A DNA stretch of 64,000 nt, from the NCBI GenBank assembly GCA_904066235.2, contig CAJFCV020000002.1, positions 1,364,001 through 1,428,000 on the forward strand. Direction: 5' to 3'. The notes beneath the pieces were generated by a model. The model was not told where the DNA came from. It saw only the letters and a program-made list of their open reading frames with translations, and did no database searches. Of the stretch, positions 9,101-63,516 are shown piece by piece (positions within the stretch are counted from its first letter, which is position 1; every line of letters begins with the position of its first letter). The stretch comes from Bursaphelenchus xylophilus (Eukaryota; Nematoda; Chromadorea; Rhabditida; Aphelenchoididae). Both the position numbers and the translations under genes were made by a program.

Positions 9101-9111
9101 CTCCTTACAGA

Positions 9112-20951: not shown

Positions 20952-21023
20952 TGCCCAAGACAGGAATCGAACCTGTGTCGCCACGGCCACAACGTGGAGT
21001 ACTAACCACTATACTACTTGGGC
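20952..21023 (-). tRNA. tRNA-His (GTG)
   Basis: The minus strand folds into a full cloverleaf. The acceptor stem is GCCCAAG/CTTGGGC with discriminator A. The D arm is TAGTATAGTGGTTAGTAC. The anticodon stem is CCACG/CGTGG around loop TTGTGGC, giving anticodon GTG. The T arm is ACAGG-TTCGATT-CCTGT. Box A (TAGTATAGTGG) and box B (GGTTCGATTCC) are intact. The base before the acceptor stem is also G, although eukaryotic tRNA-His normally gains its G-1 after transcription. The gene lies just upstream of the small-protein/GRO-1 cluster. Confidence 0.97.
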
Positions 21024-40584: not shown

Positions 40585-43548
40585 CTATCCAAGCCAGCTG
40601 ACTTTCTTCTTCCTTTCATACTGTAGCACTTTTGATTTGATGACATTTGCAATTTCCGAAGCCCTCCTGTTCTGTCCATAGTAATCGAAGAAGTTTCCTT
40701 CTGGATCAATCAGGTACATCATGACAGTGTGATCTACAATATAATCATCGGGAACTTTCTTGTCGGCGGGACCTTGTGAATGATAGATTCGGAAAGTCTT
40801 GAGGACAGATTCAATTTCTTCTTTACTTCCGGTATACCCTCGGATTTTTGGGGAGAATTCTTGGCAATACTTCTTTACTCGGTCCACAGTGTCACGGGCC
40901 GGATCTACACTGTAAATTGGCAAAAATTATATTACACTAGACATCTTATGACACATAAATCCAAAAAATAAGCTAAAAATAGGGTCTTGCAGACACCTGC
41001 TACCTCAAAACCAAAAATTTAGCAAACATTTTTGCCATATTATCTATGACATCAAAGATTGTCAAAATCTGTGGAAAAATTCCAATTTCTTACCCTAACA
41101 AGGGCTCGGCAAAACCTCGTCCCCTGGTTTCTTCTTAAAACATATACCATTTGAAAGAGCGCAAAAAACTGGTCTAGGATCACCTATAATTAGCTGCTAA
41201 GATTCTCTTACACACTAGCTAGCGAGCATTTTTTAGTTCTAAGCCAGCCTCACCCTTCTTTCAAGAAAACAAAAGCGATCGATTTCAAAAGCACAGCGGA
41301 GCAGTGCTTCGGTGGCCTAGTGGGGTAAGGCGCTCTACAAGGAGGACCTGCGGACCAGGTTCGACTCCTCTTTTGAATTTTTGGATTTTTTTTGGCTGTT
41401 ATGGAATGAAGAAGGCTAGCATGTAGTCTTTAATTTTAAATTGATTTTTAGGGTACCCTAGATTAGTTTTACTAGAAAAATCGACAGGTTTTTAAATTTT
41501 TTTTGATATAGGTGTCTTTGACCCTGCAGTGGGCATCCAAGATGGTTGAAACTTTCAACGGCTTTAATATTTTTTGCCAGGAATGCCCATTTACGGACAG
41601 TACGTGAAAAACGAGCCTGAAAACGGTATACATATTTGAAACCTCCTAGTATGTCTCGGGTTACAAGACCTAAAACATCGCCTAATCACTCGTTCAGGGC
41701 ATCGACCTGAGAGTTTCAAGCTCGGAAAAAACTTTATGTTTTTTGATCTTGATTGAAGCCTCCAATGTCATAGGTGACTAATATTTGTATGAAAAGTGAT
41801 TATTCGATCTCGTTGGCATCTCAGAAGAAAAGGTTCCCAAAGTCTAATTGGGAATTTTGAAAAAAAGTTCGCTAGCTAGCACGTAAGTGAATCTTAGCAG
41901 CTAATTGAAGGTGATCCTAGACCAGTTTTTTGCGCTCTTTCAAATGGTATATGTTTCAAGAAGAAACCAGGGGACGAGGTTTTGCCGAGCCCTTGTAAAA
42001 TCAGAAAAAAAATAAAAATCAAAACATCGCTTACGTTATAAACACTGGTACCACAGGCACCGGATCTTTCTCGCTGTCCAATTTATCCACAACATCCACC
42101 ATTTTTTCGATTTCGTCCGGACAAATATCGGGGCAATTGGTGAACCCAAAATACATGAGAACCCAATTGCCAAGAAGCTCCTTTGACCCTTCTCTTTTCC
42201 CATCCTGATTCGTCAATTCCCATTCACCACCAATCCTAGCTTTTCCAGCCAACAGCTTTCTTTGCCTTTTCTCTTCATCAAGCCTCTGAAAAAGGTAAAA
42301 AAAGGTGAAAAAATTGAAAAATACAATCAGTAAATCCGAGCAATAGGCTAAAATTTGTCGCAAATTAAATTCCATGCCCAAAAATAAACAAAAATTCCGT
42401 GTCAACCTCAAATTTCATCAATTTTTCTTTCATTTTCATCAAAAAACCTCATAATTGGTCAAAAACCCCCGAAAAATCGGTCGACTATCATGTGCACCAA
42501 CGGAAAATGCCGTATCGAGAAGCTGGTAGAAGAGGCATTCTCTAACCTCGACGCTCAAATCGAATCCATCCGAAAATCTGGCCGAAAAGGACATGCTTCG
42601 ATCCACATTCAATATGATTGCAAGCATAAGGAAAACAGCTCCAAAAGCACTGCAACCTCATTAAATTCCAACACCACATGCTCCCTGGACAATGTAAAGA
42701 CCAGAAACAACAAGAAGAGTGAATCTAGAAAGTCCAGGAGTAGCCGAACATCTAGCCGGTAGGTTCAACTAAAGTAATATAATTTCTAAGCCGAAAATCC
42801 TTTTTTTCAAAACTTGTTAAACGATCAAGTCTTAGTATTCATATTTCAGCTCTTCTAAATGTTCCGTTTCCTCACATAAATCCGACTCTTCTTTCGCCAG
42901 CACCTCGACCAACCTCAGCTGGAGCAAGTTGAAAGATCGCCGTAAACTACTTGATGGGTTCTTGGAAAAGAGCAACAGCACTCAGAACCGCAATTCACGT
43001 AACTAAGCCTCGTCAAAAATCCGGAATTTTCAGTAAATTTTGATCTTTCGGATATTATACTTGATGAATAAATTTTTTAACGAATATGCAAGACAAGATT
43101 GCACTCACAGTCTTCCGGAGGTACAACAGAACCACGCTGGTAATTCCAGCCAATCCCAGGGTAAATACCGCCGACTTCCACCCAAAAATGTAACTTCTTT
43201 CGTGAGCTGCCTCCTGAAACAGCAAGTGTAATATAATCGGCTTGTTTCCGTATAATTAGTTCCTCTAAACATTGAAAAACAATAGTCAAAGTTTTGACAT
43301 ACCTCTCTCTTCTGCTTGAAACTCATAAAGTCCTTTCTCGGGTTAAATTCAGGCTGTTCGTTGATGGGCTTCTCTAAGGCTTCATCCAACTTTTTTGTCA
43401 ACTCGTTTACATCAATATTTAGGTCTTTCCCAACATCCTTATCCTTACCATCAGTTGACTTTAATCGTATTTGGCCTGAAGAAGTGATTGACGCCCGAAG
43501 AAACCGAGGAAACGCTGGTGTTCGAAGGAGGATTTGAAGTCCTCGCAT
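40585..43548 (-). CDS. sco-1: SCO1, mitochondrial copper chaperone for cytochrome c oxidase, 308 aa
   Basis: Four exons (43548-43303, 43213-43109, 42285-42035, 40909-40585) join in frame. SCO1 is an inner-membrane protein with a thioredoxin fold that delivers copper to the CuA site of COX2. Seen: a basic mitochondrial leader (MRGLQILLRTPAFPRFLRAS), one membrane segment (AVFTLGLAGITSVVLLYL), the NWVLMYFGFTNCPDICPDEI strand-loop with the copper-binding CxxxC, FITVDPARDT, EFSPKIRGYTGSKEEI, and the DYIVDHTVMMYLIDPEGNFF segment with the conserved copper-ligand His in VDHT. The length equals that of animal SCO1. The ATG follows TTTTAG by five bases. Intron 2 contains a plus-strand gene and intron 3 contains a tRNA-carrying transposon. 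The gene is divergent from NOC4 and upstream of TFIIF alpha. Confidence 0.95.
41099..41995. mobile_element. CAAGG-ended DNA element with tRNA-like module (element A)
   Basis: The left end CAAGGGCTCGGCAAAACC is the reverse complement of the right end. The two arms (41099-41233 and 41868-41995) are inverted repeats of about 130 bp. TAA flanks the element on both sides (41096-41098 and 41996-41998), a 3-bp target-site duplication. No transposase frame is present, so it is non-autonomous. The interior holds a Pol III-type module (41287-41374). The element lies in SCO1 intron 3. A 3-bp duplication fits PIF/Harbinger or CACTA-like elements among known superfamilies, but the CAAGG tips do not settle it. 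Confidence 0.8.
41287..41374 (+). other. tRNA-like Pol III module inside element A (probable pseudo-tRNA)
   Basis: Box A TGGCCTAGTGG (41313) and box B GGTTCGACTCC (41358) match the internal Pol III promoter consensus, and a T4 terminator follows at 41371. Acceptor and anticodon stems do not pair well, so a working tRNA is unlikely. A lead sequence AAAAGCACAGCGG is shared in form with element B at 62.7-63.3 kb. Confidence 0.6.
42490..43006 (+). CDS. Ser/Lys-rich protein nested in a SCO1 intron, 141 aa
   Basis: Two exons (42490-42758 and 42850-43006) join in frame. The N-terminus (MCTNGKCRIEKLVEEAFSNL) looks helical and has two cysteines. The remainder is rich in Ser, Lys, Asn and Arg (ESRKSRSSRTSSRSSKCSVS), then LSWSKLKDRRKLLDGFLEKS. 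Composition suggests a disordered basic protein. The whole gene lies within SCO1 intron 2 on the other strand. No domain recognised. The frame is supported by good GT-AG junctions and an in-phase join, not by homology. Confidence 0.55.
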
Positions 43549-43709
43549 TTGGCCTAAAATAAGTTAAATTTAAGGATTCTCTTGAAAAAACGATCGTTTA
43601 AAAGTCAAAGTTAACTAACTCCTTGACGAATAAATGACTGAACAGCTAGTATTCACAAGTTTCCAGTTTATTTCGACCACAAAACATGCAAAAAATAAAA
43701 TTTCGCAAA

Positions 43710-43724
43710 TCCCAAGCTGCGCCC
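43710..43724. promoter_or_regulatory. Conserved motif in a divergent promoter (copy 2)
   Basis: TCCCAAGCTGCGCCC lies 162 bp from the SCO1 start and 282 bp before the NOC4 start. It is identical to the motif at 14771, which is also in a divergent promoter, and in the same orientation. Confidence 0.4.
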
Positions 43725-44005
43725 AATTTTCCGCAGGCTGCGGGAGTGTTATACGAAAAAAGCGTTTTGGCATTGAGGCCAACTTATGTAAAACAGGCAA
43801 AACAACTCTTGAAGTTGTTTTAGACGTCTAATTTATCCTACAAAATGCAAAAATTTAGTTTTCACTTGAACAGAAGTTAGAAATCTAACCGAATAATTTT
43901 GTGACACTTCGTTTTACCCAATACATTTGTGACACTTCGTCCTTCAGTTATTTTTATTCTTTTTGTCAATTTTCTTGACTGTTTCTTGTTGTAAAACATC
44001 ATAAA

Positions 44006-45143
44006 ATGTCCTCTACCCCAGTGCGGAAAGGAAATCGCAAGCAGCAAGAATTTGACGAGATATTCACGAAATTTACAGCATTGGTAAGATCTCCTTTAGT
44101 TTTTATTGTTGTTTTTAGGAAGGAACTTCTTCATTTCACAAATTCGTAGACAACTTCGTGGACAATGAAATCAGACAATTAGAGAAGCCGGAGCTTTTTG
44201 CCGATTTATTGCTGAAAGCTTTGAAATCCGGAGGTCTGGCTTCGATTCCTGCCTTCAGAGGCTTGTTGTTCTTGGTGTTGGAGAAGAACTTGTAAGTTTT
44301 GTGCCTTAATAGTTGCCTTGGATCTTTAGGAAGGCTCTGGTTGTGCTGCTCTCACTTGCAAATGATAAAGTATTTTCCTTCCTCATCTAGTATAACATAA
44401 TTTTTAATTCTCCTTTCCAGCGCCGTCGACAATCTGTATGAAGAAGTTTACAAGCTTCTGAGGCCGACTACAGTGTTTTCAAACCAATCACAGAAGCTTC
44501 TTGAGCTGGTTGGCAGTTCTTTGAGCTCACCTTACCTACCTCAATATACATTAGCTGCGTTCGCTAAAAAGTTGGCCCGGCTTTTGCTGATTGCCCCCGT
44601 ACAACAACAGTTGATGATTCTCAACGTTTTGAAGAACATTTGCCACACACATCCTGCGATATTTGATCTTCTAGCTAACAGAAGCGAACCAGGTAGGATT
44701 TTGGTGGTGAATTCATTTGATTTTTGAGTTTTTAGGTAAAATATGGCTGTCTAAACGAATATAGGGTTGATACAGAGGTATTTTGACGTCTGTCGGTATT
44801 GTTACAACCGCTATTACCTTATTTTGTCGTCAACTTTGGTCTAAATTTCCAATTTTCAGCTACCCTAGCATCAGATCCATATGACCCAGAAGCCCCAATC
44901 ACCGAATCCAAAGCCTCCGAATCCTCTCTCTGGGAATTAAAAGCAATTCATCATCACTGGTATATCCGTGTTGCTGACCGATCCAAATTCATTCATGGAA
45001 ATCGACCAGAACAGCGCGTAAAAATCGTTGGTGAAGATGTCGCCGAGGCCATCTTGAACAAACTGAAGACCGACAACGCTGCTTTGAATCCTAAATTTGG
45101 CCTGAAACCTCTTGAAGCCACAAGGGATTTGATTTGCGATTGA
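44006..45143 (+). CDS. NOC4 (nucleolar complex protein 4 / UTP19) homologue, short form, 268 aa
   Basis: Four exons (44006-44083, 44119-44291, 44421-44692, 44860-45143) join in frame. The CBF/Mak21-type helical repeat region is clear: SIPAFRGLLFLVLEKN, YEEVYKLLRPTTVF, SSPYLPQYTLAAFAKKLARL, NICHTHPAIFDLLANRS, LASDPYDPEAPITESKASES and SSLWELKAIHHHWYIRVADR. These match NOC4L in the same order, including the DPYDP and ALESSLWEL-type motifs. NOC4 with NOP14 acts in 40S subunit assembly in the nucleolus. Human and yeast proteins are around 500-550 aa. Here the N-terminal half is missing and replaced by a short basic start (MSSTPVRKGNRKQQEFDEIF). An unseen upstream exon is possible but the start looks clean. 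Confidence 0.85.
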
Positions 45144-45377
45144 TTTTTTCGAATTTTGTGGGATATGTCATGTTATCCATGAAATTTTTTATTTTTCATT
45201 TTTTTGTTGCTTGTTTATTGTTGAAACTCCTGTTTTTATTGATTGTTGGTAAATGATTTTTAATTTAGAAGGTCTAGAAAGTTAGTTGAAATTTAGAAAA
45301 AGCGCTTTTTCCATGATTTTTGACAAAATTGGAATTTCCCTTCATTTTTTTATTTTCTCACTCAAAAATCGGCTGAT

Positions 45378-48300
45378 ATGCCTCGATTATTCTTCATTAT
45401 TCTTCTTTTTTCATCATCAATGATCCTCAGATCATATGATCATACCGATACAACTGAGCTATTCAATACAACCGGCATTCCCATCGCTGAAATCGAGAGT
45501 GTTTGGAATGAGACCACCAAATTCCACGAATATGACTTTGAATTCTCATTCAATTATGGGATAAGGTACGAAATATCAACTGGATTGAGGAATCAGGATC
45601 CCAACGACACGGAGAGTCATCATTGTGTTGGGTTGTACAGCAAAGAGAAGCCGAAAATACGGATTGCCGCGTGTGTTATACGGGAAAATGAGGAGGCATA
45701 TCGAGTTTATACGTTTGGAAATTTACGTAAGCAGTCCTTCTTGAATAGATGTTTCTAAAACAGAGATTTTAAGGCTCAAAATTAGAGTGGGGGACCTGAT
45801 TCATTGGCCAAAGACGTACCATTTTGCATCCGGGAAGTATCAAAAATGTGGCAAAATACCTCCCTCTCCAAGTGAAAAAACTCCGATTTCAAAAGCGCGC
45901 CCGCTCTTTTTATGAGGGGAAGGCGCGCCCTTCAAAACGAAGTTTTTTCACTTGGAGAGGGAAGCATTTTGCCACATTTTTGATACTTCCCGGATGCAAA
46001 ATGGTACGTCTTTTGCCAATGGATCAGGTCCTCTACTGTAGTAAGAAATAGTTTTCCGTCCAGCCGTCTTTTCACTTCACGTGCTATCTCTAAAAAATAC
46101 CGCCGAAAAAGGCGTCGCGACTTGCGAGTAACCACTTTGCGGGCAACCAACATTAGTCGATTAGAATTACGACCAGAGATTGCCACGGTCAAAATGTTGG
46201 CTCCGGCTCCGGCTCTTAGCTCCCAGAGCCGGAGCCGAAGCCAAATTTGCAGCTCCGGCTCCGGCTCTTGGCTCCGTGCAAAATTTAGAAAAGCCTCCGG
46301 CTCCGAATCTCGGCTCCTATGCAAAATGTGTTTTAAAATTATTTTTCCAAAAATAAAAGTTATTAGTGCCAGAAATCATAGAGCCAACGTTTTTGCAGTC
46401 AAGTCACATCCTCCGCAGTGTTTTTTAAAACAATTTGGTTTAACAAGATCGCGAAATTTTTACTTTTCTGACCGCTGGGAAGCCTGGCTCCGACTTTGAG
46501 CTCGGGAGCCGGAGCCTACCCCAAAATTTCCGGCTCCGGCTCTGGCTCTCGGCTCGGAGCCGGAGCCGCTCAGAGCCGGAGCCAAGAGCCGGCTCCGGAG
46601 CCGTGGCAATCTCTGATTACGACTTTTCTATCGTAATCTACGTAGTATGATAGAAATTTTTCATTAGTAACTACCCGATACAGATAAGTAAACAAAATTC
46701 GGGAATCTGTCGAATTCATCCGCCGCTTTCAAAGTTTTGGGAGTTTGTTTTCAAAAAACAGTTTCTGCACCTTTAAAAATGCTTGGTTAACCTTATGGAA
46801 ACTATTCAAGCCATTTATACACTCGTAAACTTAATTCGCAACATCAACTGCCAAAGCCATCGTTATAATTTCCTGTTGTAAGCAAATGTTGGCTGATTTC
46901 CAAACATCCCCCGTAGAGTCTCCGTGGTCCTTTTAACTTCCCGAAAAACGGTTGCGTCTGGGGCCGGCCCAAAAAAATTATGAAAATCGAAGACTCACAC
47001 TTTTACACTACCACTTTTCTCTTTTCAGATGAGACTTCATACTACTACAAGTTCGACCATCAACCCAATCTCACCACATTTTCAATACACGGCTCGGTCC
47101 TAGCAATGACAATTGATGGACTAGTTCTTCGAATACCCCAGGCGGCACTTTTTAAGTTTGAAACAAAGTTGAAAAGCTCACGAAGTTACAAGCTAATTTT
47201 CACGACAGATAATCAAAACCTCACAAGCGGCACCCTTTGGCATACATTTCGAAATGTAAGTAAAAATAATGATGACTATCACAAAAGACGTCAAAGTAAA
47301 CGTTTTTTCGACTAAATTTCTCTTTTGCCTACAGTTTTCCGGAGGCAATTTTAATCGAAATTGAAGGTTCATATCTCAAATTTGGATAGAAGATAAAAAC
47401 TTTGGGTATTTCTAATCTCTCAAGCGAATATTTTTTCTGATGAATAGAAAAACATGACTTTATTTTCAGAAAACATTTATCTACCCTGCTAATCCGTTCC
47501 CAGTTACTGATGACGGAAAGGACTCGTTAAGCAAGAGGTTTCGTGTGATAGAAGAAGAAGAATCGCGCGCAGCTGTAACGCTCTTCAGGAAGATCAGGAT
47601 TTTCGTTGTGACTTTGTAAGCATCTTCTTTATTCCGTCTTCTTCTTGAAATTACCCGACGTAGGAGATCTCATAGAATTTTTTGTTACATTTTGCCTATC
47701 TGGATGTAAACATCCGTTACAAAACCTCGCCCATCGTGGCAAACGCCCAAGAAGGTATACATCCAGCCACCCCCTTCCTGAAGCACTTGCAAGGTGGAGA
47801 GTTTGTAACAGAAACGAAAAACTCACTGAATTACAAAAGTCCTCACGACACTTTCAGCTGGGGAGACGCAATTTCTCTAACGTTTAGCGGTCTCTTTTTT
47901 CCAAGCATCTTTTTTTAAAACACAACTGATTTTGGGCGCAAAGAAAAGTTCTTTCTGAGCTGCGCCCGAGTTTAAATTTCAAGTTATTTTTTTTGGCTAG
48001 CTGAATTTTTTATTTTTTTAGATCGAGGCGTGGTCAAGGGTACTTTCAAGGGTTTCCAATATTTTTATTCAAAAATTTTTCTTATTTTCTTTTGAGGTTC
48101 ATGGCCATTCACAGGGAACTCAAAATCACTTATAAAAACTTTTATTTACTTATAAAAACTTCAAGTTTTTATAAGTAAATAAAAGTTCTTATAAGTGATT
48201 TTCAAATCACTTATAGGTAATTTTTATTTTCGGCGCCCGGGAAATTCACTTATAGGTAATTATAAATACTTATAGGTAACAGAAAATTATGCACAGTGCA

Positions 48301-49584
48301 GGATAGATAAAAATTTATTCAAACAAAGTAAAAAACAACTTGACTCTGATATATTACCGGTTACACATGTGGTTAGCGCATCTTCTGTGTCCTGACGGGG
48401 CTAACTTGCTTCTGTGCGGATTTTCTATGGGTACTCTGCGGCTAGATGCACTGAAAATAGTCAAAGATAAAGAAAAAGTAAATAAAATTGTCGGAGATAG
48501 TTTATTATGAGCTGTCCTTGAACTCATTTTTTTTTTTGCTTTCCCATCCCAAAAATTAGTTTGAGGATCAGAAATTTGGCAATGAGATTTTGAGACATCA
48601 AGTTTTTTATGTTGTACTAGGTCTAGGTGAATATTATCGACATACCTGAGGCATCCGAGAGTCATTTTTTCCAGACATTGTGTACACGTTGTCCATTTAC
48701 TTCCTCCACGAACATTTTGTGATTATCTGAAATAGTGGGTTCACCTGGACCTAGTACAATGTAAGAAAACTATGTCTTGAAAAGTTTCTGGCCTTCTGAA
48801 ATGTGGAAGCAGTTTAAAACACCTACCAAAATCGAGGAAAGAGTTCTCCATCCAAATTCTTGATTGATCATGCTTGTTCCTAGATCTTCCCAGGCTGTCT
48901 GCTCTTCCATTTTGACTTGTTTCCTAATCGGGAAGTTTCTTATGTTCCGGATTTTTCATCTACCCACTGTTTACAGTCCTGTAAAATAAAATAACTCACT
49001 AGAAACACCTTACCTTGTTCCATCCAACGTTTAAATACCCTCTTTGACCAGTACTGCTACGAAAAACTTAGAATTTCTAAGTCTCGCCCATGCGTTCAAA
49101 AAGCCAAAAGCGTCTTTGGCGCTCAACTGTTTTCTTTTCGGAGTCCTTATTGGTAATTATAAGTAAATATAATTTCTTATAAGTAAATCAAAATAGGCTC
49201 CGCCTTTTTTTAACTTATAAGTGAATTTTTGGGAAATATTTTTACCTATAAGTAAATAAAAGTTTTTATAAGTAAATCCGAATCCCCTGTGTTATACAAC
49301 TTACACCTTTTTTTAGCATAGTCTCCGCTTTTGTCATTGCAATTCTCGTCTGCGTCCTCCTATCTTGTGTTATCCATGATTTGCGCCGCAATAAACGACA
49401 TGTAAAACGCAATTTCAAGATGGAAGGCCAATTGAGAGACCTGAATAACCTGGCAACCGGCCGGATCGAGATTCGGCATTTTAAAGACGTCGAAGTTCAA
49501 GAAGCCATTCAGAAGTTCAGACAGAACATCCAGAACAAAACTCTCCGATTTTACATTGTTGAAGGAAATAAAAATGAAGTTTGA
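45378..49584 (+). CDS. Type I membrane glycoprotein of unknown function, 329 aa
   Basis: Four exons (45378-45726, 47029-47255, 47470-47615, 49317-49584) join in frame. A signal peptide (MPRLFFIILLFSSSMILRSY) leads to a ~200-residue outer region with several N-x-S/T sites (NTTG, NETT, NDTE, NLTT, NLTS) and few cysteines. One membrane segment (FVVTLFIVSAFVIAILVCVL, then LSCVI) follows, split by the last intron. A basic cytosolic tail comes next (HDLRRNKRHVKRNFK) ending FYIVEGNKNEV. The introns are swollen by insertions: a CAGTG MITE and a hAT MITE in intron 1, and a ~1.15 kb inverted-repeat element in intron 3. No family recognised. Confidence 0.7.
45785..46038. repeat. CAGTG-type palindromic MITE, copy 11
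   Basis: Left end (TA)GAGTGGGGGACCTGATTC and right end GGATCAGGTCCTCTACTG followed by TA, with inverted arms. It lies in intron 1 of the membrane glycoprotein gene. Confidence 0.8.
46174..46615. mobile_element. hAT-type MITE with 8-bp target duplication and GGCTCC repeats
   Basis: The element starts CAGAGATTGCCACGG and ends CCGTGGCAATCTCTG (exact inverted repeats). It is flanked by the 8-bp direct repeat ATTACGAC (46166-46173 and 46616-46623). An 8-bp duplication and CAGRG-type tips are hallmarks of hAT transposons. Subterminal regions on both sides are filled with GGCTCC/GGAGCC hexamers (46198-46310 and 46500-46605). The centre is AT-rich and non-coding. It lies in intron 1 of the membrane glycoprotein gene, 136 bp after a MITE. 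Confidence 0.85.
47676..47918 (+). CDS. Possible unassigned exon or gene fragment within an intron
   Basis: An open stretch reads YLDVNIRYKTSPIVANAQEG, then IHPATPFLKHLQGGEFV and SPHDTFSWGDAISLTF, and has balanced, protein-like composition. It lies in intron 3 of the membrane glycoprotein gene and cannot be joined in frame to the neighbouring exons with confidence. It may be a decayed fragment of another gene or an alternative exon. Confidence 0.25.
   Translation, partial: NFLLHFAYLDVNIRYKTSPIVANAQEGIHPATPFLKHLQGGEFVTETKNSLNYKSPHDTFSWGDAISLTFSGLFFPSIFF
48126..49285. repeat. Inverted-repeat element with CTTATAAGTAAAT-rich ends
   Basis: The left end (ACTTATAAAAACTTTTATTT) matches the reverse complement of the right end (AAATAAAAGTTTTTATAAGT). 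The terminal ~170 bp on each side repeat variants of CTTATA(A/G)GTAA(A/T). A weaker inverted pair inside (48575-48628 and 48737-48790, around ACCTAGTACAA) adds secondary structure. A 103-codon minus-strand frame at 48354 has no recognisable domain. It lies in intron 3 of the membrane glycoprotein gene. Superfamily unknown. Confidence 0.5.
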
Positions 49585-49850
49585 CTATTTTAAAGGCGCT
49601 ATGACTTTTCGGGTCAACGATACTATGGGAGTTATGGCCAAAAAATGTTTTTATCTCTTACCGCTCTCCGCGTCTCACGTACGCTCTCGCCCAGGAAAAC
49701 CGTTGAATATCTCGACCACCCCTTCAAAGAGTGAGCTCAGATTTTCAGCGAAGAATATGTGGCCTATGTCCAAAATATGCGCAAAATTTAAAGACACTCT
49801 GAAAGTCGCCCTTAGGGCAGTTGCCAAATCATTCGAAAAATGAACCCCGA
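49585..49850. repeat. Decayed copy of the 7.7-9.5 kb repeat family
   Basis: It contains TGGCCAAAAAATGTTTTTAT, CCGTTGAATATCTCGACC and GAGTGAGCTCAGATTTTCAG in the family order. It directly follows the stop of the membrane glycoprotein gene. The 95-codon frame over it is a by-product. Confidence 0.5.
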
Positions 49851-49979
49851 GATTTTTCCGGATTGTTTATTGCTTACAATAATAATGCACCCTGAATATA
49901 TATGCGTACCTAGAAAAGATATGTACAATGTCTAACAAACTTTTTCGACTTTGCAGCAATGAATGGCCTTGTCTTAGCT

Positions 49980-52211: not shown

Positions 52212-52410
52212 GGTCTGAAAGACGACTATTATTTTTTGTCTTTAAAGTTGAGCTCTCTGCACGATCCTAGAAACGATTCTTTTTTCGGTAGGTGACACGG
52301 CTTCATGAGATGGGTAAAAACCTCCCCTATCAGTACTAAAAAAAGGTATAATATATTATTTGGGATCGGTGAAAAATAAAAAATCTTAAATGTCTGATCA
52401 GACCCGGTTT

Positions 52411-52438
52411 GTTGATAAATAAATGTTATAGTTGATAA
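52411..52438 (-). promoter_or_regulatory. Paired TTGATAA sites upstream of the UGT
   Basis: TTGATAA occurs twice 20 bp apart, about 200-230 bp upstream of the UGT start, and TGATAA occurs again at 52618. In C. elegans, intestinal genes including UGTs are driven by the GATA factor ELT-2 through TGATAA. A role here is inferred from motif and position only. Confidence 0.35.
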
Positions 52439-54189: not shown

Positions 54190-56028
54190 TTACGGCCGAT
54201 AAAGGCCGTCGTGTATGTCGAGGTTGTCCCAGACTTCAGTACCGGCATCGGGGAAGAATATTCTCGCAATTACCATAGATTCTCGGAACTCGGATGCTTG
54301 TTTCTGAAACAATCCGCATTAAAGTGTGTTCATTATGATTTCTGCGCCTTATTTTTACACCAAACTTACGACAATATGCTGCATGAGGCGCTGAAAGTAT
54401 CCTATCCGAGGCCCAATATTGGGGACTCCATACTGTGAAGCGAGGTAAAACAAAAATTCGGTATGAATATCGTCCGCAGCCTTTCGGGTTTCCGGAGTGT
54501 CCAGACCGAGGTCATGAACTAAAATTGACAAATATTATTACTATGTGCCAACTTGCTTGATGAACTTACGGATGTTATAGAAATTCAACACAACAGTCTT
54601 CATGAGCTCCGGTTCGGTCAAATTAACTTCTCTCATTTTTCTCACCGTAACCAGAAAACTCTCAATAATCGGAATCATAAACTTTGCATTCTCCTCCGGC
54701 TTTTTTGAGCCCTCAAAGAAACCAAGCGCCGATTCCACATCCCAATAATATCCATAGTTTAAAATGACCCTTGGCTTGTCTTCTCGGTAAACTCTGGCAG
54801 AGACAAAAGCTCGATGGAGACAAATGAATTCGTAGAGGAAGATTTTCATGAGCTTTACTTTGTTGTCATGCGATAACTCGCGATATATTGGAGCGGTGTC
54901 TAGGAGAAGCCGATGCACAAGTGGGACGGTACCACGTTCCATTCGGATCTGCTCGGAGCGAGTTATTGGCTTGAATTTTACGGTCTAAAATTTACAAACT
55001 TTTACTAAATTTAAATTTGGTGTTAAAGGAAGACATTTAATGTTCTGTTTATTTATGGCGTGGCGATTATTGTTAGGCGTTCCTCAAATTCTGAATGCGC
55101 GGTTTATGGAGTCTCTATAAGGACCAGTTTTCGCTTTACCAACCCATGCTATCCAATCACTGCCAGAGAATACCCATAACGAAGAAAGCGTCCTGTCAAT
55201 AAGCAGTTTGCCTGTAACTGTGTATAAGTTCCTTTCTGAATGACGACTGATTTTTGGAGCATAATAAAAGTCATCTTTTACTAGAGGAGTCAAGCCCTCA
55301 AATTGGCGTGTCAGTCGCATTGCTCAATCACTATTTGCGCAAAGGTTAATCAATACATAAGCGTCGCATACTTATGTAGCAATTCCCTTTATAAATTCCA
55401 GACAAATGCGCAGCTTCTTTGGACATGCCTAGTTGCTTTCTTAACGGTTTGTCTAAACAACAAAAACAAAGATGTCAAAGCCCTTACCTCAAAGGTGCTG
55501 AACAAGTCCTCTGGATTCTCAGTGATATACATTGACCTCTCTGCGTTACAAAAGTTTCGATAATGCGCAACGAACTTTTCGAGTTCATTGGTGGGACAAT
55601 TTGCCGGCTGAAATATGCATTATTGTTTCAAAAAATCATCATTCTCCTGTCCCAAAGTTAAACTGAAATTTAAAACGTACATTAAGATACTGCTTGATCA
55701 GATCAGTTGTTGGCTTTGCAGCTCCAGTTGTTTTCGAATGCTCTTTCGAACATTCCGGCCGTTCCTCATCATACTCGAGATAGCGGATCCGACTCTCCGT
55801 CATTCCGATGCGCTTACAGCGCTCCAACCGACAGGCTCGGCAATCATTCCGCAGCTCTTTTGACAATTGACAATTCCCTGTTCCTCGGCATTTGTACACC
55901 TTCCCTTCGACCAACGACCGGCGATAAAACGAGGCGCATGCGCGACAAGCCTGCACTCCAAAGTGCTTTCCTTTGTGCTTTTGACCGCAGACTGAGCAAG
56001 TATAAGTTATGTTGAGCCCGCGTTTCAT
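54190..56028 (-). CDS. Nuclear hormone receptor A of a tandem trio, 381 aa
   Basis: Five exons (56028-55681, 55607-55488, 54984-54570, 54518-54370, 54303-54190) join in frame. Zinc finger 1 reads [20 protein letters not shown] followed by CASFYRRS, so the P-box is [10 protein letters not shown], typical of the nematode-expanded receptors. Zinc finger 2 has [20 protein letters not shown] and [11 protein letters not shown] hinge follows, then a ligand-binding domain beginning [20 protein letters not shown]. It includes [14 protein letters not shown] and [18 protein letters not shown] and ends [15 protein letters not shown]. The ATG follows GTTTCAG by one base, a strong trans-splice site. The ligand and targets are unknown. 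It is the most 3' member of three same-strand paralogues. Confidence 0.93.
55084..55320 (-). other. Unexplained open frame inside a nuclear receptor A intron
   Basis: A 78-codon frame ([20 protein letters not shown] then [18 protein letters not shown]) fills part of the intron that is much longer here (503 bp) than in paralogues B (165 bp) and C (80 bp). Its composition is protein-like. It might be a fragment captured by insertion, or chance. Confidence 0.2.
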
Positions 56029-56815
56029 GCTGAAACAACTAATTTCACTATCAGAGGAAAAGAGGAATTTTAATCGAAAACAGGGAAGGAGTGTGCGAGC
56101 GACTATGCGCTATCTAAACGAGAGGTTTTTTTGGGGGCAAGGGGGGGGGGGTGTCGCTATTAGGCTACACAACCCAGTTTAGACTACATACTATGATTTG
56201 CAAACGGTTAAACACTCTAAAATCTTGCGGGCGGGTGACAATCAAAGAAATTTTCCCGTACAGCAAAACCTATAAATAACAAATAAATTTTTTTGGTATC
56301 CTGTGGATTGTGGTGGTAGTTTGACATGCCACTAGTCAGCCTAAGGGGAGTCCGTAGCCACTTCGGTAGGCTCTAAATATTGCCCTGAAGGAAGATCGTC
56401 CCTGTATTTCAACTTCCTTTTCGGCTCTCTGAAATCGCGGACTGAAAGGAGGCTGCTTACAGTTAGAGATTGCGTCATAGTTTAAAGAATCAAAACTAGC
56501 AACTTTTGAAAGCGTTAAAGACTGCTTGTATTAAATTTGTTAAACGCATGTCGACCAATTAATGCGCGCAGTAGAAGAGGGCAATCTGAAGGGATTGAAC
56601 TAGAGACTACGCAGAAGTTTCATTAATTTGCTGGTGAAAAGAGCACTTCTCAGATTAGTAACACAAACTTAACTTAACCTTTGTTTTTAGCGAAACTCTT
56701 TTCAAGAAAACGGTTTATTGCATACATTTTTTTTATCGTATCTTCTTTATATATAAATAGTATTAGAATAATAGAAAAAACGAATTTATTAGAAGACAAC
56801 TTGAAATCCGGGCTT

Positions 56816-58294
56816 TCAAGTGCTGCTACTTCCACCTCGATATCTGAATTCTTGTAAAGGCTTGGAAAGGTCGTCGTAGATGTCCAAGTTTTCCCAGACC
56901 TCAGTTCCGGCGTCAGGGAAGAAGATCCTGGCCAAGAACATTGATTCACGGAAATCGGAAGCTTGCTTCTGCAAAATATTGATTATAAAAGGCAAAACAG
57001 CAGGAAACTTACCACAATATGATGCATAAACCTTTGAAGACATCCCAGCCTCGGCCCGAGACTCGTAATCCCGTAATGCGACGAGATATAATACATGAAT
57101 TCGGTGTGAATATCGTCTACAACTTTCTGCGCCTCCGGCGTGTCCATTTGCAGGTTATGTAGGTTGTTGTAGAACATCAGCATCGCCATCATCATCAACT
57201 CCGTCTCGGTTAGATTCAGATCCTTCATCTTATTCACCGTGACAAGCAGACTTTCAATTATCGGCACAATAAATTTCATATGCTCGTCCAGCCGCTCACA
57301 GCCCTCGAAGAAGATTTCGGCGGAGCCGACGTCCCAGTAATACCCGTAATGCAATATTATCCTTGGCTGCGCTTCTTTCCTGTAGGCTTTGGCTGAGACA
57401 AAAGCTCGATGAAGGCAGAGAAACTCGTAGAGGAAGATTTTCATGATCTTGACTTTGTTATCGTGCGTTAACTCTTGATACACGGTGGTGGTGTCAAGGA
57501 GGAAGCGGTGGACCAACGAGACGGTGCCGCGCTCCATTCGCATCTGCTCGGAACGAGTTATGGGCTTGAATTTCATACTCTGAAAACGTGGAGGTTAAAC
57601 ATTCAAGACGGTTAATTTTCTTGGCTGTAACTCCCTCTACATCGTAGAAAGACAGTTGATTTTCCATCCCTGATGTAAGATGCGCAGTAGCTTCTTTGAG
57701 CTTGATTTTTTGACTAAATGGCAAGAGCAAATTAAAGAACTCACCTCAAACGTACTGAACAAGTCTTCAGGATTCTCAATGATATACATTGATCTCTCAG
57801 CGCTGCAAAAGTTTCGGTAATGAGCCTCGAATTTCTCGAGATAATTGGTAGGGCAGTTGGAGGGCTAAAATCATATTCTTGGGATGAAAATGCATACATA
57901 ATAATATATAATAGCAACCATGAACTTTTCATTTAGAGATCTCCCTTACATGAAAGAAGATCTGACTCGGATTCTCCATGTTTTTAGTAATATCCAGCGC
58001 CGTGGACCCATCTTTCGAGCATGACGGAGATTCCTCCACAATCTCAACTGATCGAATTCGAGCTCCAATCATCCCGACCTGCTTACAACGCCTTAGGCGG
58101 CAGGCTCGACAAGAATTTCGCATTTCATTCGACACTGGACATTTCCCGTTTCCTCGGCATTTGTAAACTTTGCGTTCAACCAGCGAGCGGCGATAGAATG
58201 ATGAGCAGGCACGGCAGGCTTGAACCCCAAAATGCTTGCCATTGTGTTTCTCGCCGCAAACGGCGCATTCGTAAGTTGGGGAGCCTTGGCTCAT
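56816..58294 (-). CDS. Nuclear hormone receptor B of a tandem trio, 394 aa
   Basis: Four exons (58294-57950, 57864-57745, 57579-57013, 56968-56816) join in frame. Zinc finger 1 is [20 protein letters not shown] with CSSFYRRS, and zinc finger 2 is [20 protein letters not shown] with [10 protein letters not shown]. The ligand-binding half closely matches receptor [74 protein letters not shown]. The exon encoding [14 protein letters not shown] is continuous, whereas A and C have an intron at that point, so B has lost it. A longer C-terminal tail ([13 protein letters not shown]) is unique to B. The start lies 12 bases after an AATTCAG acceptor. Confidence 0.93.
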
Positions 58295-59877
58295 TAAGGT
58301 TGGGAACTGAATTACGACGTGATGAAAAGGATGAAAAATAAGCACTAAAACCCGCAATAAGGAAACCGAAGATTGAAAGAATTAAAAGAACCTTCAATAA
58401 TCAAAAATAACGCTTGAAAAAGTTCAAATCAATAGTAATTTTATTATACCAACGACGAGCGGCGACACACGCTCCGTGTCTAAAGCTGCCCATTAGACCC
58501 GTTATCATCAAAAGGTCAACGAATGATTTTTGAACGATGAAAGCGGGTTCTTCAGAGTTTGTGGCGACCTTTAACGCGAGTCTAGGACGAATTGCCAAGT
58601 ATAAAAAACCAAACTAATCATACATGATAATTATCCTTCATCAGTAAAAAGACGCTCTTTTCGGTGTTAAAAAGCAAAGTCTATACTCCGGGCTGTCTGC
58701 TGTGTAATAAAACGGCAATTCTTAACCGATAAGGCTTTTGGAAAAAGAGCGAAAATGCGATGACTTTATACTACAGACTCCACATGGAGTTGGGGACTCC
58801 ATTTGAGAAATTTCTGAGTAATATGGGACTTAAAACAACAAAGAATCAAGAAGGAAAGTTGATTCGAGTTTTGATTAATTCAAAAATAAATAAAGATTAT
58901 TCTAAACCGAGGTCTTTTATTTCATAGCAGCCTATTACATATTTCTTGCCAATGATCATAAAAAACTTCGACTTTTTTCAAGGGCCCTGACGCAAAAGCC
59001 TTTAAGTCCAGCCAAATGATTTTTACCATTAAATTCTCCGCGCTTTTCCTAGCCCTTTGATTTTCATGTCCGTATTGATTACTTAACGTTCCCAAAAATT
59101 TTCCCACTTTCAGAAAACCTTTTGATCGCCAAAGGTAATTACATACGGAAAAGTTATTTACAGAAGGGGAAGAGAAGTCAGACAAAGCATGGTCGACACA
59201 CTCTTCATTATCACGACGGGTCGATCGGGAGTGAGAGGCAAGTGAAAGCAAAGTGACGAAAACTTCCCTGCTCTGAAGACCAAAATTGAAATAGCGGATG
59301 GGAAAAACAATGGCGTTCGGACAGCTTTTTACTTTTCAATATCTGCAGGGTTACGTTGCAACGTTCCTACACATTAGCTTGAAATAGCAATGGTGTGAAA
59401 ATAGAGTTGAAATTGGTTGAAAAACAAACAAGGAAGTTTGCGAGGTTAAACTACATTTCTCTTTTGCTCGTAACGGAAAATAGAGGTGTAAGGCAATGTT
59501 AAGAAGTCTGCCGCAACGTCGTAGTGTGTGAGCAGAGCCCACATCACAACTTTATTTTAATACCTATGGCGTCTTTTACTTCCCCGCAAGAGGCGTAACA
59601 AGGATAGTGTGTGGGCCAGCCGGTAAGAAGTTAGGCCTTGCAAAACTAAAAAAAATAATGTGGATATAGCAACGGTTTGGTTTACCAACGTTTGCGGAAG
59701 GACCAAGTATAATAATTTATTTGCGAGTCTACTTTGCTCTCCATATCTTCCTGAAACAATTTGTAACCCATTCATTGGACCCTTATATACATGCCACAAG
59801 TTTTTTGCGTTTAATGAATTTTGAGGTATGCATACAGTAGTATTATTTCATAGATTTAAAAGATGTTTAAGTTTGCT
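58295..59877. other. Intergenic interval between nuclear receptors B and C
   Basis: No coding chain is supported. The 109-codon minus-strand frame at 58922-59251 and others nearby lack domains or splice partners. The downstream part contains the 3' flank of receptor C. Confidence 0.4.
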
Positions 59878-61278
59878 CTAGTAAACCGACGGTGTTGGAG
59901 TAGCACACTGGTTTAGATCTTCCCAGACTTCAGATGTCGCATACGGAAAGAAGACCTTGGCCATGACCATCAACTCCTGCAGCTCGCTGGCTCTCTTCTG
60001 AAGAGACTAATTGCCAAGTGCGTTTCCAGACTTACCACAACATGATGAGCAAACCGTTGAATATTACCAAGTCTTGGGCCCAGATTACCAACTCCAAAGT
60101 GTGAAACAACATTATATACAAGTTCATGGTTCATGGAGTCGGATGCGGCTTGAATTTCCGGTGTCATTAGGTGTAGATCGTGAACTAAAACGGGTTATAT
60201 GTTTCCATAATTTTTTCAGCATATGATTACCGAATACAAGTCAACCAATAACAGGAGTAAAACTTACGATTGTTGTAAAACATAATCATAGCTATGGCCA
60301 TCAGCTCCATCTCGGTAACTCTCAACTCCTTCATTGCAGCAACAGTATGGATCATGCCTTGAATAAACGGTCGAGTAAACGCCGTATGCTCTTCTATTTT
60401 GTCTGAGCCTTCAAAGAATGTACTCGCGTAATCGTCGTCCCAATAATAGCCATAATGAACCACCAGCGCCAGTGGCTGGCCAGGCTTCGAGATCTTGGTC
60501 GAGGCGAATGCTCGGTGTACACATACAAACTCGTAGTAGAAAGTTCGCATTATCTGCAATTTGGTCTCTCTAGGAAATGCTTTGAAGAATGCAGAAGCGT
60601 CCATAAGAAACGAGAAAACCAATGCAATTGTTCCACGTTCCATTCGAATGTGCTCGGTGCGTCTAAGAGGCTTAAAGTTCATGTCCTGCAAATCATATAG
60701 TAATTTGCGGAATACAGAGCAGACACGGAGAGGGCGGCCAGATTGGAAAGTATTTCTAGCCTTACCTCTAATGTGTTGAATAAGTCATCCGGATTCTCCA
60801 ACATGTACATCGATCGCTCGGCGCTACAAAAGGTCTTATAGTGCGCTGCTAGCCTCTCCAGCTCCCTTGTGGGACAAGCTGCTGGCTAAAGAACAATTTT
60901 CAGCCGTTTAGTGGCACCTACATCAACACAGATAACATTCGGGTTTGACAAATCCAACGGTAGGCTGTCCTCGACGTTGATCACACCTTCGTGCTCCGAG
61001 CAGGATGGAGTATCTTCGTGAATATCTGCTGAGGGTACTTCAACTTTCATCCCGACTTGACGACATTTTTCCAGACGACATGCTCTGCAAGCATTGCGCA
61101 TTTCTGCCCTTTCGACTTGACAGTTGCCGTTCCCTCGACATTTGTAGCGTTTTCTCTCAACCAACGATCGTCGCCAAAAAGACGAACACGCACGGCAAGC
61201 CAGAACTCCAAAATGCTTTCCATGGTGACGCTCGCCACAAACGGCGCAACCGCTTGTTGATGAAGCATTCAGGCTCAT
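59878..61278 (-). CDS. Nuclear hormone receptor C of a tandem trio, 387 aa
   Basis: Five exons (61278-60922, 60885-60766, 60685-60268, 60184-60036, 59997-59878) join in frame, with the same intron positions as receptor A. Zinc finger 1 is [20 protein letters not shown] with CSSFWRRS. Zinc finger 2 is [20 protein letters not shown], one residue longer between its second and third cysteines than in A and B. The hinge is acidic ([20 protein letters not shown]). The ligand-binding domain shows [40 protein letters not shown], and [16 protein letters not shown], with a divergent end ([18 protein letters not shown]). It is the most diverged of the three. Confidence 0.92.
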
Positions 61279-62353
61279 TTTGCGACTTGAAATTTAAGGT
61301 TTATTACGAAATTTAAATTCGTATAGACTGAGTTGCCTTATTATAATGGCCAGATGAAGAAAATCTTTCTTTACTCCCGGAAGAAAAACAGTCCTGATAA
61401 ATACATTTGCTGCAGTTATAAAGAAACTCGGAATTAAAAGGACGCGATGTAAGCTGAAGAACAAAATCATCAAAAATTTTTAGAGAATCCCACAGTTCCT
61501 TCGAAATATGTACTTTCAAAGACTGGAGTCTAAAATTATACTTGAAAGACTTTTTTCAGCCTTGAAAACAATAAAATGTGTCTGCGCAACGACAATGTCA
61601 CGCGCTACGAAACGCCCGTTTGTAAAAGACATCCAAATCGTCAATAGTTCAATTAAAGAAGAAAATATCCTTAAGAAACGTGAACTGCATAAACAACAAA
61701 AAGAAACGTTGAGGGATCGATAAATGAAAAAAGTGCTTGTTTGAACGATCCCAAAGTTTTTACAGCTGAATTTTTCTAGTTTCAAAGCATACGTTATGTT
61801 TTGGGTCAGGTTTGCGTTGTTTTCCGCGATTTTGTGGAGAAGGATAACATTGTTACGTGAAATTATGAAAAAATTGCAAAGGGCCAATTAGGAATAAATT
61901 ACAAGCCAAACGGAAATTGTTGGACTCCTACTCTTTGACATCCTTTCCAACCCTTCGGTTAGCTTTTTTCGAGGCTTCCAAGCTATTCTGACACTTGAGC
62001 CATTTAGGAAACGTGTCTGTCATTTCAGCTGATTGGCTATCTGGCGAAACAATTTTTCAACATTAGCTATACTTATTGGGCCAATGACCGGTCTACTCCA
62101 AATGAAACACCCCAACGGCAGACAATTCAGTCAAAAAGAGAATGCAGAAAGTTTTCAAACCTAGAAATTGTTAAAACATGGAAACATTGCGCAACAGAAA
62201 AATTAAAAACTTGGCAGAAAAGATCAAAAATTTAATCAAGCAATGCAGAAATTTTCAAAAATTCGTAAGCTCAGAATTCTTCTTATTCATTCGTACTTGC
62301 CTTCCTCAAGTCAACGCGTTCCACCTTCCATTTCTTCGACGATCTCCATCATC
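61279..62353. other. Intergenic interval, no gene supported
   Basis: It spans the divergent space between receptor C and the C8 zinc protein gene. Short chance frames occur on both strands (61316-61887). An in-frame upstream ATG of the zinc protein at 62243 could extend that gene into this interval. Confidence 0.4.
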
Positions 62354-63516
62354 ATGTCCTCTCCGATGGTCCCCGACTCCTCGGTTGAAGAAATGAAGGC
62401 CTTTCTGGCGGCCAACATGGATTATCTTCCATCGCGCCCATTCGACCACGATCAGCATCGAAGAAACGTGGAAAAAATGATTGAGATAATGGATGAGATA
62501 GAAGAAATAATGCCAATCATTCTGGATCCGGGAATGATGCACCCAGAGGACGACGTGAATACGATTATGAATGTATTCGGCAACATGATCGGCGAATATA
62601 ATAAGTGAGTTTTTATTTTATTTTCAATTTTTGTATTAGTTTTTTTTGAGTCCAACAATTTTAAGTTTGATTATTTTCACAAGGAAAGTACTTTTATGGG
62701 GGCTCCTACTTTTTGACGGGACATATCTCAAAAAATCAGCAAAAATGTGCTGATCAAGGATATATAAATCTTAGCTGCCCATTTTAGGTTTTTAGGGGTG
62801 AAAACTCAATCGGAAGTTGACTTAAAGTCCTATATGAACCCCTTTTCGTCTAATTTTTCACGGGTTTACAATTTTTATTTTGGCTTAAAATGATGTTTAT
62901 TGAGTTTCTAAGACGTAATAGATCAGTCTTGGCCCAAAAATTTATTTTTCCGACCTTCAACTTCAAAAAAGTTGATTCAGCCCAAAAGGGAAATCGAACC
63001 CGTGCGGCGTCCCCCCTCTTGATTCCCCGACTACGGCACTAACCACTCGGCCACACCGCTCTCTTCCGAAGGAAGAGACCGACTGCGCTTTTTATCGTTT
63101 CGAATGCATGCGCCTTTTGTAGGGAAATTGAGCCAGTTTTTGGGCATTTTCACCCCTAAAAGCCCAAAATGGGCAGCTAAGATTTATATATCCTTGATCA
63201 GCACATTTTTTCTGATTTTTTGAGGTATGTCCCGTCAAAAAGTAGGAGCCCCCATAAAAGTACTTTCCTTGTCAGAATGTTCTTGGACCTCGTCAACTCG
63301 ACACAGAGAGAAGTCAAGATTGAGAACGATGTGTGTCATGTATGCCTAGAAGACGAAGCCAAGGACCCCATGTACTGCCTCCAGTGCCTGAAGGTGGTTG
63401 GTTGTGCAACATGCATCGCCGAACTTGTGTCCCACCACGGGATTTTCGTGAAATGTTTGAATTGTCAACGAAAGTCTTGTGTTGACAACCCATTATTTTT
63501 CCCAGCCAAATTGTAA
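62354..63516 (+). CDS. C8 zinc-binding (RING-like) protein, ~163 aa
   Basis: Exons 62354-62604 and 63276-63516 join in frame. Exon 1 gives MSSPMVPDSSVEEMKAFLAA and an acidic helical region (KMIEIMDEIEEIMPIILDPG). Exon 2 gives CHVCLEDEAKDPMYCLQC then CATCIAELVSHHG and CLNC: four CxxC pairs with spacings of 10, 5 and 12 residues, enough to bind two zinc ions. The layout recalls RING-type domains but lacks the usual His ligand. An E3-ligase role would be a guess. An in-frame ATG at 62243 could add 37 residues. The single intron is almost entirely a transposon (see element B), which sits across its 3' splice site. Confidence 0.72.
62680..63271. mobile_element. CAAGG-ended DNA element with tRNA-like module (element B), inserted in a 3' splice site
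   Basis: The left end CAAGGAAAGTACTTTTATGG is the reverse complement of the right end, with arms of ~125 bp (62680-62806 and 63146-63271). TCA flanks both sides (62677-62679 and 63272-63274), a 3-bp target duplication. There is no transposase. A tRNA-like module lies inside on the minus strand. The right-hand TCA plus the next G form the acceptor TTGTCAG used by exon 2. Removing the element and one TCA restores a normal 79-bp intron ending ATTATTTTCAG. Confidence 0.85.
62984..63094 (-). other. tRNA-like Pol III module inside element B (probable pseudo-tRNA)
   Basis: On the minus strand box A TGGCCGAGTGG (63053-63043) and box B GGTTCGATTTCC (63000-62989) are followed by T4 at 62987-62984. The T arm is imperfect and the 3' acceptor strand has no partner. 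Instead GCGGTGT before box A can pair with ACGCCGC before box B. A functional tRNA is unlikely; a Pol III-transcribed SINE-like RNA is possible. Confidence 0.6.

What the first reader, a model, noticed from the sequence alone, without database searches (positions are those of the whole stretch)
41099..63271. A family of DNA elements that carry tRNA-like Pol III modules between long inverted repeats
Two unrelated-in-sequence elements (41099-41995 and 62680-63271) share one architecture. Both have CAAGG...CCTTG tips, arms of 125-135 bp, a 3-bp target duplication (TAA and TCA) and no transposase. Each has an internal module of lead sequence, box A, box B and T4. Cut-and-paste elements normally do not carry Pol III promoters, so this could be a tRNA-derived SINE captured by a transposon, or a transposon group that uses Pol III transcripts.
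Basis: partly seen in the sequence, partly recalled or inferred. Interest (0 to 1): 0.8.

Follow-up and report, generated by a model that had tools for sequence, protein, structure and literature searches.

The report
Tc5-type transposons with tRNA-promoter modules
In the pinewood nematode, a lineage of cut-and-paste transposons carries a tRNA-gene-like promoter (box A plus box B) about 200 bases in from its ends, which suggests that these jumping genes use the cell's RNA polymerase III factors and may seed such binding sites around worm genomes.

Summary
Both elements are repeats with CAAGG…CCTTG tips and TNA duplications, short members of Tc5-type families. Element-2 tips also bound a transposase element (L067); element-1 tips bound one with a Tc5 C-terminal domain (L072). 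The module is not a separate SINE insertion. Box A starts 195–218 bp from the tip, pointing inward, in 10 of 12 CAAGG-tipped families whose inverted repeats I could inspect. Seven of the ten have it in both arms, including the four Tc5_C-transposase families identified. Between families only tips and boxes are alike on average (boxes about 80% identical, other stretches 30–40%). Genome-wide, CAAGGG followed 188–218 bp later by TGGCCGAGTGG occurs 233 times, against 0 and 3 at two control distances. In family 1 the boxes are the most conserved interior sequence. The tRNA fold is not kept, which points to a TFIIIC site rather than a tRNA. Two CAAGG-tipped families lack the module. TFIIIC binding and Pol III transcription are untested. 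Host: Bursaphelenchus xylophilus. In C. elegans many extra-TFIIIC sites fall in the tRNA-like repeat CeRep3; whether CeRep3 is related was not tested.

The parts
41096..41098 (.). target-site duplication TAA, left (right copy at 41996-41998)
41099..41995 (+). element 1: non-autonomous Tc5-type element, 897 bp
   Evidence: tips, TNA duplication, 33 near-full-length copies among the candidates scored
41099..41234 (+). left terminal inverted repeat of element 1
41860..41995 (-). right terminal inverted repeat of element 1
41313..41324 (+). box A (TGGCCTAGTGGG), 214 bp from the left tip
   Evidence: conservation
41358..41368 (+). box B (GGTTCGACTCC), 33 nt after box A
   Evidence: conservation
41371..41374 (+). 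T4 run after box B (possible Pol III terminator)
   Evidence: T runs are common in this DNA, no control run
62677..62679 (.). target-site duplication TCA, left (right copy at 63272-63274)
62680..63271 (-). element 2: non-autonomous Tc5-type element, 592 bp; tips shared with transposase-bearing L067 and L065
62680..62804 (+). left terminal inverted repeat of element 2
63147..63271 (-). right terminal inverted repeat of element 2 (module-side arm)
63042..63053 (-). box A (TGGCCGAGTGGT), 218 bp from the right tip
62990..63000 (-). box B (GGTTCGATTTC), 41 nt after box A
62984..62987 (-). T4 run after box B

Best explanation
Elements 1 and 2 are non-autonomous members of a Tc5-type (Tc4/Tc5 group of Tc1/mariner) transposon lineage in Bursaphelenchus xylophilus. 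Shown: the lineage carries, about 200 bp inside its ends and pointing inward, a tRNA-like module that keeps box A and box B but not a recognisable tRNA fold. Shown: the module belongs to the transposon, being in both arms of the four Tc5_C-transposase families identified. Inferred: it is kept because TFIIIC binds it and helps the element. My preferred function is a boundary or road-block set just inside each end. A bound TFIIIC (with or without Pol III) would keep the ends open, resist spreading silent chromatin, and stop Pol II read-through from making long hairpin RNA of the inverted repeats, which worms use to silence transposons (this last step is recalled, not tested). Short inward Pol III transcripts are possible but not required.
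For: Tc5-type: CAAGG tips and TNA duplications; Pfam Transp_Tc5_C (E 1.4e-15) and HTH_Tnp_Tc5 (E 4.7e-5) in L067, whose tips are those of element 2; element-1 tips around a Tc5_C match in L072. Position: box A offsets 214, 218, 201, 198, 199, 199, 199, 195, 204, 195 in ten families. Checks that do not start from tips: five m5-like loci picked by the box pattern alone all lie in CAAGG elements, offset 204-206 in four; the fifth is 362 with a 159-bp inverted repeat between tip and module. Genome-wide 233 hits at the predicted distance versus 0 and 3 at control distances. Conservation in 25 family-1 copies: box A 0.026, box B 0.007, interior 0.173; 0 of 560 interior window pairs of the same shape are as low; consensus columns 0.004 versus degenerate columns 0.061. 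Between nine families box A averages 81% and box B 79% identity while other stretches average 30-40% (boxes were located by consensus, so compare shuffles: at most 2 mismatches in 10 of 1800 shuffled arms, 7 of 9 real ones). tRNA fold lost: no Rfam or ARAGORN tRNA in the modules of the ten families. Precedent: C. elegans TFIIIC sites with both boxes but no Pol III fall, where they overlap repeats, mostly in the tRNA-like repeat CeRep3 (214 of 225; PMC6950938, passages and discussion read).
Against: No binding, transcript or chromatin data were available. Two CAAGG-tipped families lack the module (L039 group, L074). Elements 1 and 2 and m5 have it at one end only. Family-2 insertions do not follow CTNAG (C and G on the outer sides in 2 of 29 copies), although their duplications are TNA. 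The m4 module (4 mismatches) is not distinguishable from shuffles by score alone, although its box A and position fit. L072 box B has 2 changes in each arm. Of three unpaired family-1 tips, one has lost the start of box A and two show no module at the place. Common descent could explain part of the fixed position without present function. The ten families are not independent: tips group e2, auto1 and m5; e1 with auto4; m3 with m6.
Confidence: 0.55

Rival explanations
1. Pol III transcription is the function: each module makes a short inward RNA of about 100 nt that acts for the element, for example as a small-RNA source or decoy.
For: Box A, box B and inward orientation; a T4 or longer run starts within 82 bases after box B in ten of ten arms examined; C. 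elegans mir-1829 shows that box A/B units can drive Pol III hairpins (PMC12157501, passages read).
Against: No control was run for T runs, which are frequent in AT-rich DNA; in auto2, auto3, m3 and m6 the first T4 lies 56-82 bases downstream; the sequence downstream of box B is not conserved between families.
Confidence: 0.2
2. Passenger by descent: an ancestral Tc5-type element captured a tRNA once, and the families inherited it without present use.
For: Common position; present in the Tc5_C clade; two other CAAGG families lack it.
Against: The boxes are conserved far above the rest within family 1 and between families whose remaining sequence is unalike; elements 1 and 2 kept a module although most of their interior does not match their transposase-bearing partners.
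Confidence: 0.15
3. The boxes are transposase-binding sites inside long inverted repeats that happen to resemble tRNA promoters.
For: Fixed distance from the tip and presence in both arms of seven of ten families.
Against: Box spacing is tRNA-like (31-33 nt in seven families) and m5 has 25 bases identical to a tRNA-Ser-like sequence; elements 1, 2 and m5 have the module at one end only.
Confidence: 0.07
4. Independent SINE insertions into transposons.
For: tRNA-like sequence in repeats.
Against: Near-constant offset in the families and copies examined; no stand-alone copy among the 8 pattern hits fetched.
Confidence: 0.03

Closest known systems
Tc4/Tc5 transposons (described from Caenorhabditis; Tc4 also in arthropods and tardigrades)
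   Same: Transposase domains PF04236 and PF03221, TNA duplication, CTNAG target in family 1 (22 of 25 copies), long inverted repeats; Tc4 target rule as stated in PMC11071193 (passages).
   Different: I know of no description of box A/B modules in their arms; Tc4 and Tc5 DNA could not be examined, and the two original papers are not held. Family 2 does not keep CTNAG (2 of 29).
CeRep3 repeats / extra-TFIIIC sites of C. elegans
   Same: Dispersed nematode repeats suspected to be tRNA pseudogenes; sites with box A and box B, TFIIIC-bound without Pol III (PMC6950938, passages and discussion).
   Different: Whether CeRep3 has CAAGG tips or TNA duplications was not tested; different species.
MER6/MER6A MITE carrying a SINE V domain (mammals)
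   Same: A mariner-derived MITE that carries a SINE-derived conserved domain (PMC6887750, abstract read).
   Different: That is a V domain in one MITE group, not a box A/B promoter at a near-constant distance from the tips of many families including transposase-bearing ones.
tRNA-derived SINEs
   Same: tRNA-like box A and box B.
   Different: Module is inside CAAGG elements whose TNA duplications fit cut-and-paste movement.

Membership tests
Tc4/Tc5 group of Tc1/mariner | TNA target-site duplication | tested here: met
   24 of 25 family-1 and 29 of 29 family-2 copies with exact tips (of 30 loci each); all four TNA forms
Tc4/Tc5 group of Tc1/mariner | CTNAG target | tested here: inconclusive
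   C and G on the outer sides in 22 of 25 family-1 copies but in 2 of 29 family-2 copies: met in family 1, not in family 2
Tc4/Tc5 group of Tc1/mariner | transposase with Tc5 domains in an element with the same tips | tested here: met
   L067 shares element-2 tips: PF04236 E 1.4e-15, PF03221 E 4.7e-5; L072 shares element-1 tips and holds a PF04236 match
Tc4/Tc5 group of Tc1/mariner | catalytic acidic triad of the transposase | not tested
   no catalytic-residue alignment made
MITE (non-autonomous TIR element) | short, many copies, inverted repeats, no transposase, tips shared with a transposase-bearing element | tested here: met
tRNA-derived SINE | stand-alone copies outside the transposon | tested here: not met
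   none among the 8 box-pattern hits fetched, of 87; own duplications or a 3' tail around the module were not searched for separately
functional tRNA gene | cloverleaf scored by tRNA models | tested here: not met
   no Rfam or ARAGORN tRNA at the modules; 2-5 of 7 acceptor positions pair
extra-TFIIIC site | box A and box B in tRNA-like geometry | tested here: met
extra-TFIIIC site | TFIIIC bound without Pol III | not testable with these tools
   no chromatin data

The most novel reading that the evidence does not exclude
TFIIIC is a standing host partner of Tc5-type transposons. The lineage has turned tRNA promoters into architectural elements set about 200 bp inside its ends and, by spreading, supplies nematode genomes with extra-TFIIIC sites such as those now mapped to CeRep3 in C. 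elegans.
Probability: 0.3. Interest if true: 0.88.

Novelty: new variant of a known kind. Interest (0 to 1): 0.72.

Why it matters
DNA transposons are not known (to me) to need Pol III factors, and the listings of five paper searches on such combinations showed no such case (lists capped, papers not read apart from the abstract of PMC6887750). If TFIIIC binds these modules, a transposon lineage has built a host chromatin factor into its ends. That would give a source for the puzzling TFIIIC sites without Pol III in worms, and an explanation for tRNA-like repeats in nematode genomes. The claim can be checked directly in existing C. elegans TFIIIC maps.

Tried and rejected
Rejected: a functional tRNA gene (Rfam and ARAGORN negative at the modules); microRNA or snoRNA (only matches below the families' own cut-offs); separate SINE insertion; 'the shared architecture is coincidence'.

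Three unpaired family-1 tips (L073-L075): L074 keeps box B but lost the start of box A; L073 and L075 show no module at the expected place. The m7 and m8 families could not be fetched and rest on tip and distance in the listing only (a capped list of the 233 places, letters shown for part of it). The total copy number of element 2 was not obtained (780 first-look candidates, best 40 scored).

Against my reading and kept: the L039 group and L074 583-2031 lack the module. Family 2 does not follow CTNAG. A fold-back of another type in L069 has better-preserved tRNA sequences in both arms, so tRNA capture by long inverted repeats is not confined to Tc5-type elements.

Mistakes found on checking: one family-1 copy (L025) was aligned in the wrong orientation; one search repeats the test with it turned, and without it, and those figures are used here. 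The automatic sorting mis-filed CAAGG elements whose matched arms run past the tip; I read that table by eye. Dropped before counts: family-1 loci L008, L010, L011, L012, L016 and family-2 locus L059 had no exact tip pair of the expected size (L011 and L012 have tips further apart; L011 carries an element-2 insertion) and were left out.
Full report
WHAT IS THERE. Both elements exist as described. Element 1 (41099-41995) and element 2 (62680-63271) have CAAGG…CCTTG tips and 3-bp duplications (TAA, TCA). Copies elsewhere in the genome show all four TNA duplications. Of 30 family-1 loci examined, 25 have both exact tips at the expected size and 24 of these have equal duplications (L029 does not); of 30 family-2 loci, 29 have tips and all 29 have equal duplications. 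Family 1 sits in CTNAG, the target stated for Tc4 elements (PMC11071193, passages), in 22 of 25 copies; family 2 does so in only 2 of 29. Family 1 has 33 near-full-length copies at 75-100% identity among the candidates scored (40 of 142). Family 2 has 780 first-look candidates, of which the best 40 were scored and match over nearly the full length at 96-100%.

HOST. Two proteins in the public set lie on a contig of 12,140,115 bases, the length of the contig that holds the window; one of them (P0008) is labelled Bursaphelenchus xylophilus, the pinewood nematode. The genome has 78.25 Mb in 8 contigs.

PARTNERS WITH TRANSPOSASE. L067 (722-2967) has the tips of element 2, inverted repeats of about 305 bp and a 449-codon open frame with Pfam Transp_Tc5_C (E 1.4e-15) and HTH_Tnp_Tc5. 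L065 is a shorter relative. L072 (1451-2725) has the tips of element 1, TCA duplications and a Tc5_C match. Two further transposase families were read: L068 (35% identity to L067) and L069/L070/L071. The genome has 12 Tc5_C matches, 11 over the cut-off. By similarity they appear to fall into these four families; I read five of the twelve loci (L067, L068, L069, L070, L072), not the other seven.

THE MODULE IS PART OF THE TRANSPOSON. In L067, L068, L069-L071 and L072 both arms carry box A and box B pointing inward. So do the non-autonomous m3 (L015), m4 (L053) and m6 (L030, whose right tip has one changed base and whose left tip lies outside the fetched stretch). Elements 1 and 2 and m5 have it at one end. 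Box A begins at these distances from the tip: e1 214, e2 218, auto1 201, auto2 198, auto3 199, auto4 199, m3 199, m4 195, m5 204, m6 195. The gap from box A to box B is 31-33 nt in seven families and 41-44 nt in three, the range of short and long tRNAs (tRNA ranges recalled).

CONTROLS. (1) Shuffled arms reach at most 2 mismatches in 10 of 1800 trials; 7 of 9 real arms do, with m4 at 4 and L072 at 3. (2) A search by box pattern alone found 87 hits and none for the reversed pattern. By eye, 32 look like family 1, 43 are a new module family (m5), 5 are element-2-like and 7 look like Ser or Leu tRNA genes. I fetched 5 of the 43: all five lie in CAAGG elements, box A at 204-206 in four and at 362 in L080, where a 159-bp inverted repeat lies between tip and module. 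I fetched 3 of the 5 element-2-like hits: they are relics that match element 2 at 79-88%; one keeps one exact tip, the far one, and two have none. (3) CAAGGG, then 188-218 bases, then TGGCCGAGTGG: 233 hits genome-wide, 0 in the reversed control. At 88-118 bases: 0 hits. At 288-318 bases: 3 hits, with 1 in the reversed control. The capped listing also shows two families not otherwise seen (m7, m8). (4) Among 21 partly overlapping rows of other inverted repeats in the window, one has a box pair with 3 mismatches and none has fewer.

CONSERVATION OF THE BOXES. In 25 aligned family-1 copies, with one mis-oriented copy turned, mean pairwise divergence is 0.026 in box A, 0.007 in box B, 0.152 between the boxes and 0.173 in the interior. 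No interior window is as conserved as box A (0 of 559) or box B (0 of 562), and no window pair of the same shape (0 of 560). Consensus columns of the boxes vary less (0.004) than degenerate ones (0.061). The earlier run with that copy mis-oriented gave box A 0.084, box B 0.043, interior 0.204, and 12 of 559, 0 of 562, 0 of 560. In family 2, whose sampled copies are nearly identical, the module is not more conserved than its surroundings; one 20-base block beside box B (63000-63019) is the most variable of the element (0.103). Between nine families the sequences that stand out are the tip, box A (81%) and box B (79%); other stretches average 30-40% without gaps, with higher values for related pairs. 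The boxes were found by consensus, so this figure must be read with control 1; control 3 fixes motif and compares distances.

A tRNA ORIGIN, BUT NOT A tRNA. The m5 module matches a Ser-tRNA-like sequence of the same genome over its first 25 bases and lacks the long variable arm. Rfam and ARAGORN find no tRNA at the modules of the ten families, and only 2-5 of 7 acceptor positions can pair. What is kept is the promoter.

COUNTER-EVIDENCE. Two CAAGG-tipped families lack a module: the L039 group (related tips in L028 and in L061; L061 has HTH_Tnp_Tc5 but did not appear in the Tc5_C search) and L074 583-2031; in each, one of the two tips is changed. The rule therefore holds for 10 of 12 inspected CAAGG families; it may follow the Tc5_C clade. 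A fold-back of another type in L069 carries better-preserved tRNA sequences (32.2 and 28.2 bits) in both arms, about 440 bp from its ends by my arithmetic, so capture of tRNA sequence by long inverted repeats is wider than Tc5-type elements.

MECHANISM. Shown: structure, position, conservation. Inferred: TFIIIC binding. Preferred function: a boundary or road-block inside each end that keeps the ends accessible and blocks read-through. It is inferred from properties of TFIIIC sites (insulator roles summarised in PMC6950938, discussion read) and from recalled work on read-through hairpin silencing of worm transposons. Pol III transcription is a rival, not excluded.

KNOWN OR NEW. In C. elegans half of TFIIIC sites lack Pol III yet have both boxes, and 214 of the 225 that overlap repeats fall in CeRep3, suspected tRNA pseudogenes (PMC6950938, passages). 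The word 'transposon' does not occur in that paper's text. A search for 'cerep3' in the library found only that paper. Searches for Pol III or tRNA modules in inverted-repeat transposons gave no matching case in their listings (capped lists). The original Tc4 and Tc5 papers are not held. I therefore call it a new variant of a known kind.

Noticed in passing
L069 428-3845 (G000:C3): A long fold-back element of another type carries in each arm a tRNA-like sequence that scores 32.2 and 28.2 bits in Rfam (cut-off 29), about 440 bp from its ends; an auto3 Tc5-type element has inserted into it.
   Followed up: partly
L067 1-95 (start of contig C7): The contig with the transposase-bearing auto1 element begins with GCCTAA telomere-type repeats; the element lies about 0.6 kb from them.
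   Followed up: no
L039 282-2668, L028, L061, L074 583-2031: CAAGG-tipped families without the module; L061 has HTH_Tnp_Tc5 but did not appear in the Tc5_C search, hinting that the module follows one transposase clade.
   Followed up: partly
window 20952-21023 (-): A tRNA-His gene (Rfam 67.3 bits).
   Followed up: no
window 1404-2892 and 7688-9557: Two other long inverted-repeat elements (arms about 595 and 433 bp) with different tips and no box pair with fewer than 4 mismatches.
   Followed up: partly
L011, L029, L055, L080: Nesting and side-by-side repeats: element 2 inside family 1, family 1 inside an m5-tipped copy, two element-2 copies in tandem, another repeat inside m5.
   Followed up: no
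63060-63079 (element 2) and m5 in L076: A hairpin-forming stretch just upstream of box A is shared by element 2 and m5 (55 bp at about 95%), though the rest of their interiors differs.
   Followed up: no
L076 335-406 (-): A tRNA-like sequence of 26.8 bits (below the Rfam cut-off of 29) outside the m5 element.
   Followed up: no
L030 1208-1345: A strong hairpin with matches below the cut-offs to several microRNA families.
   Followed up: no
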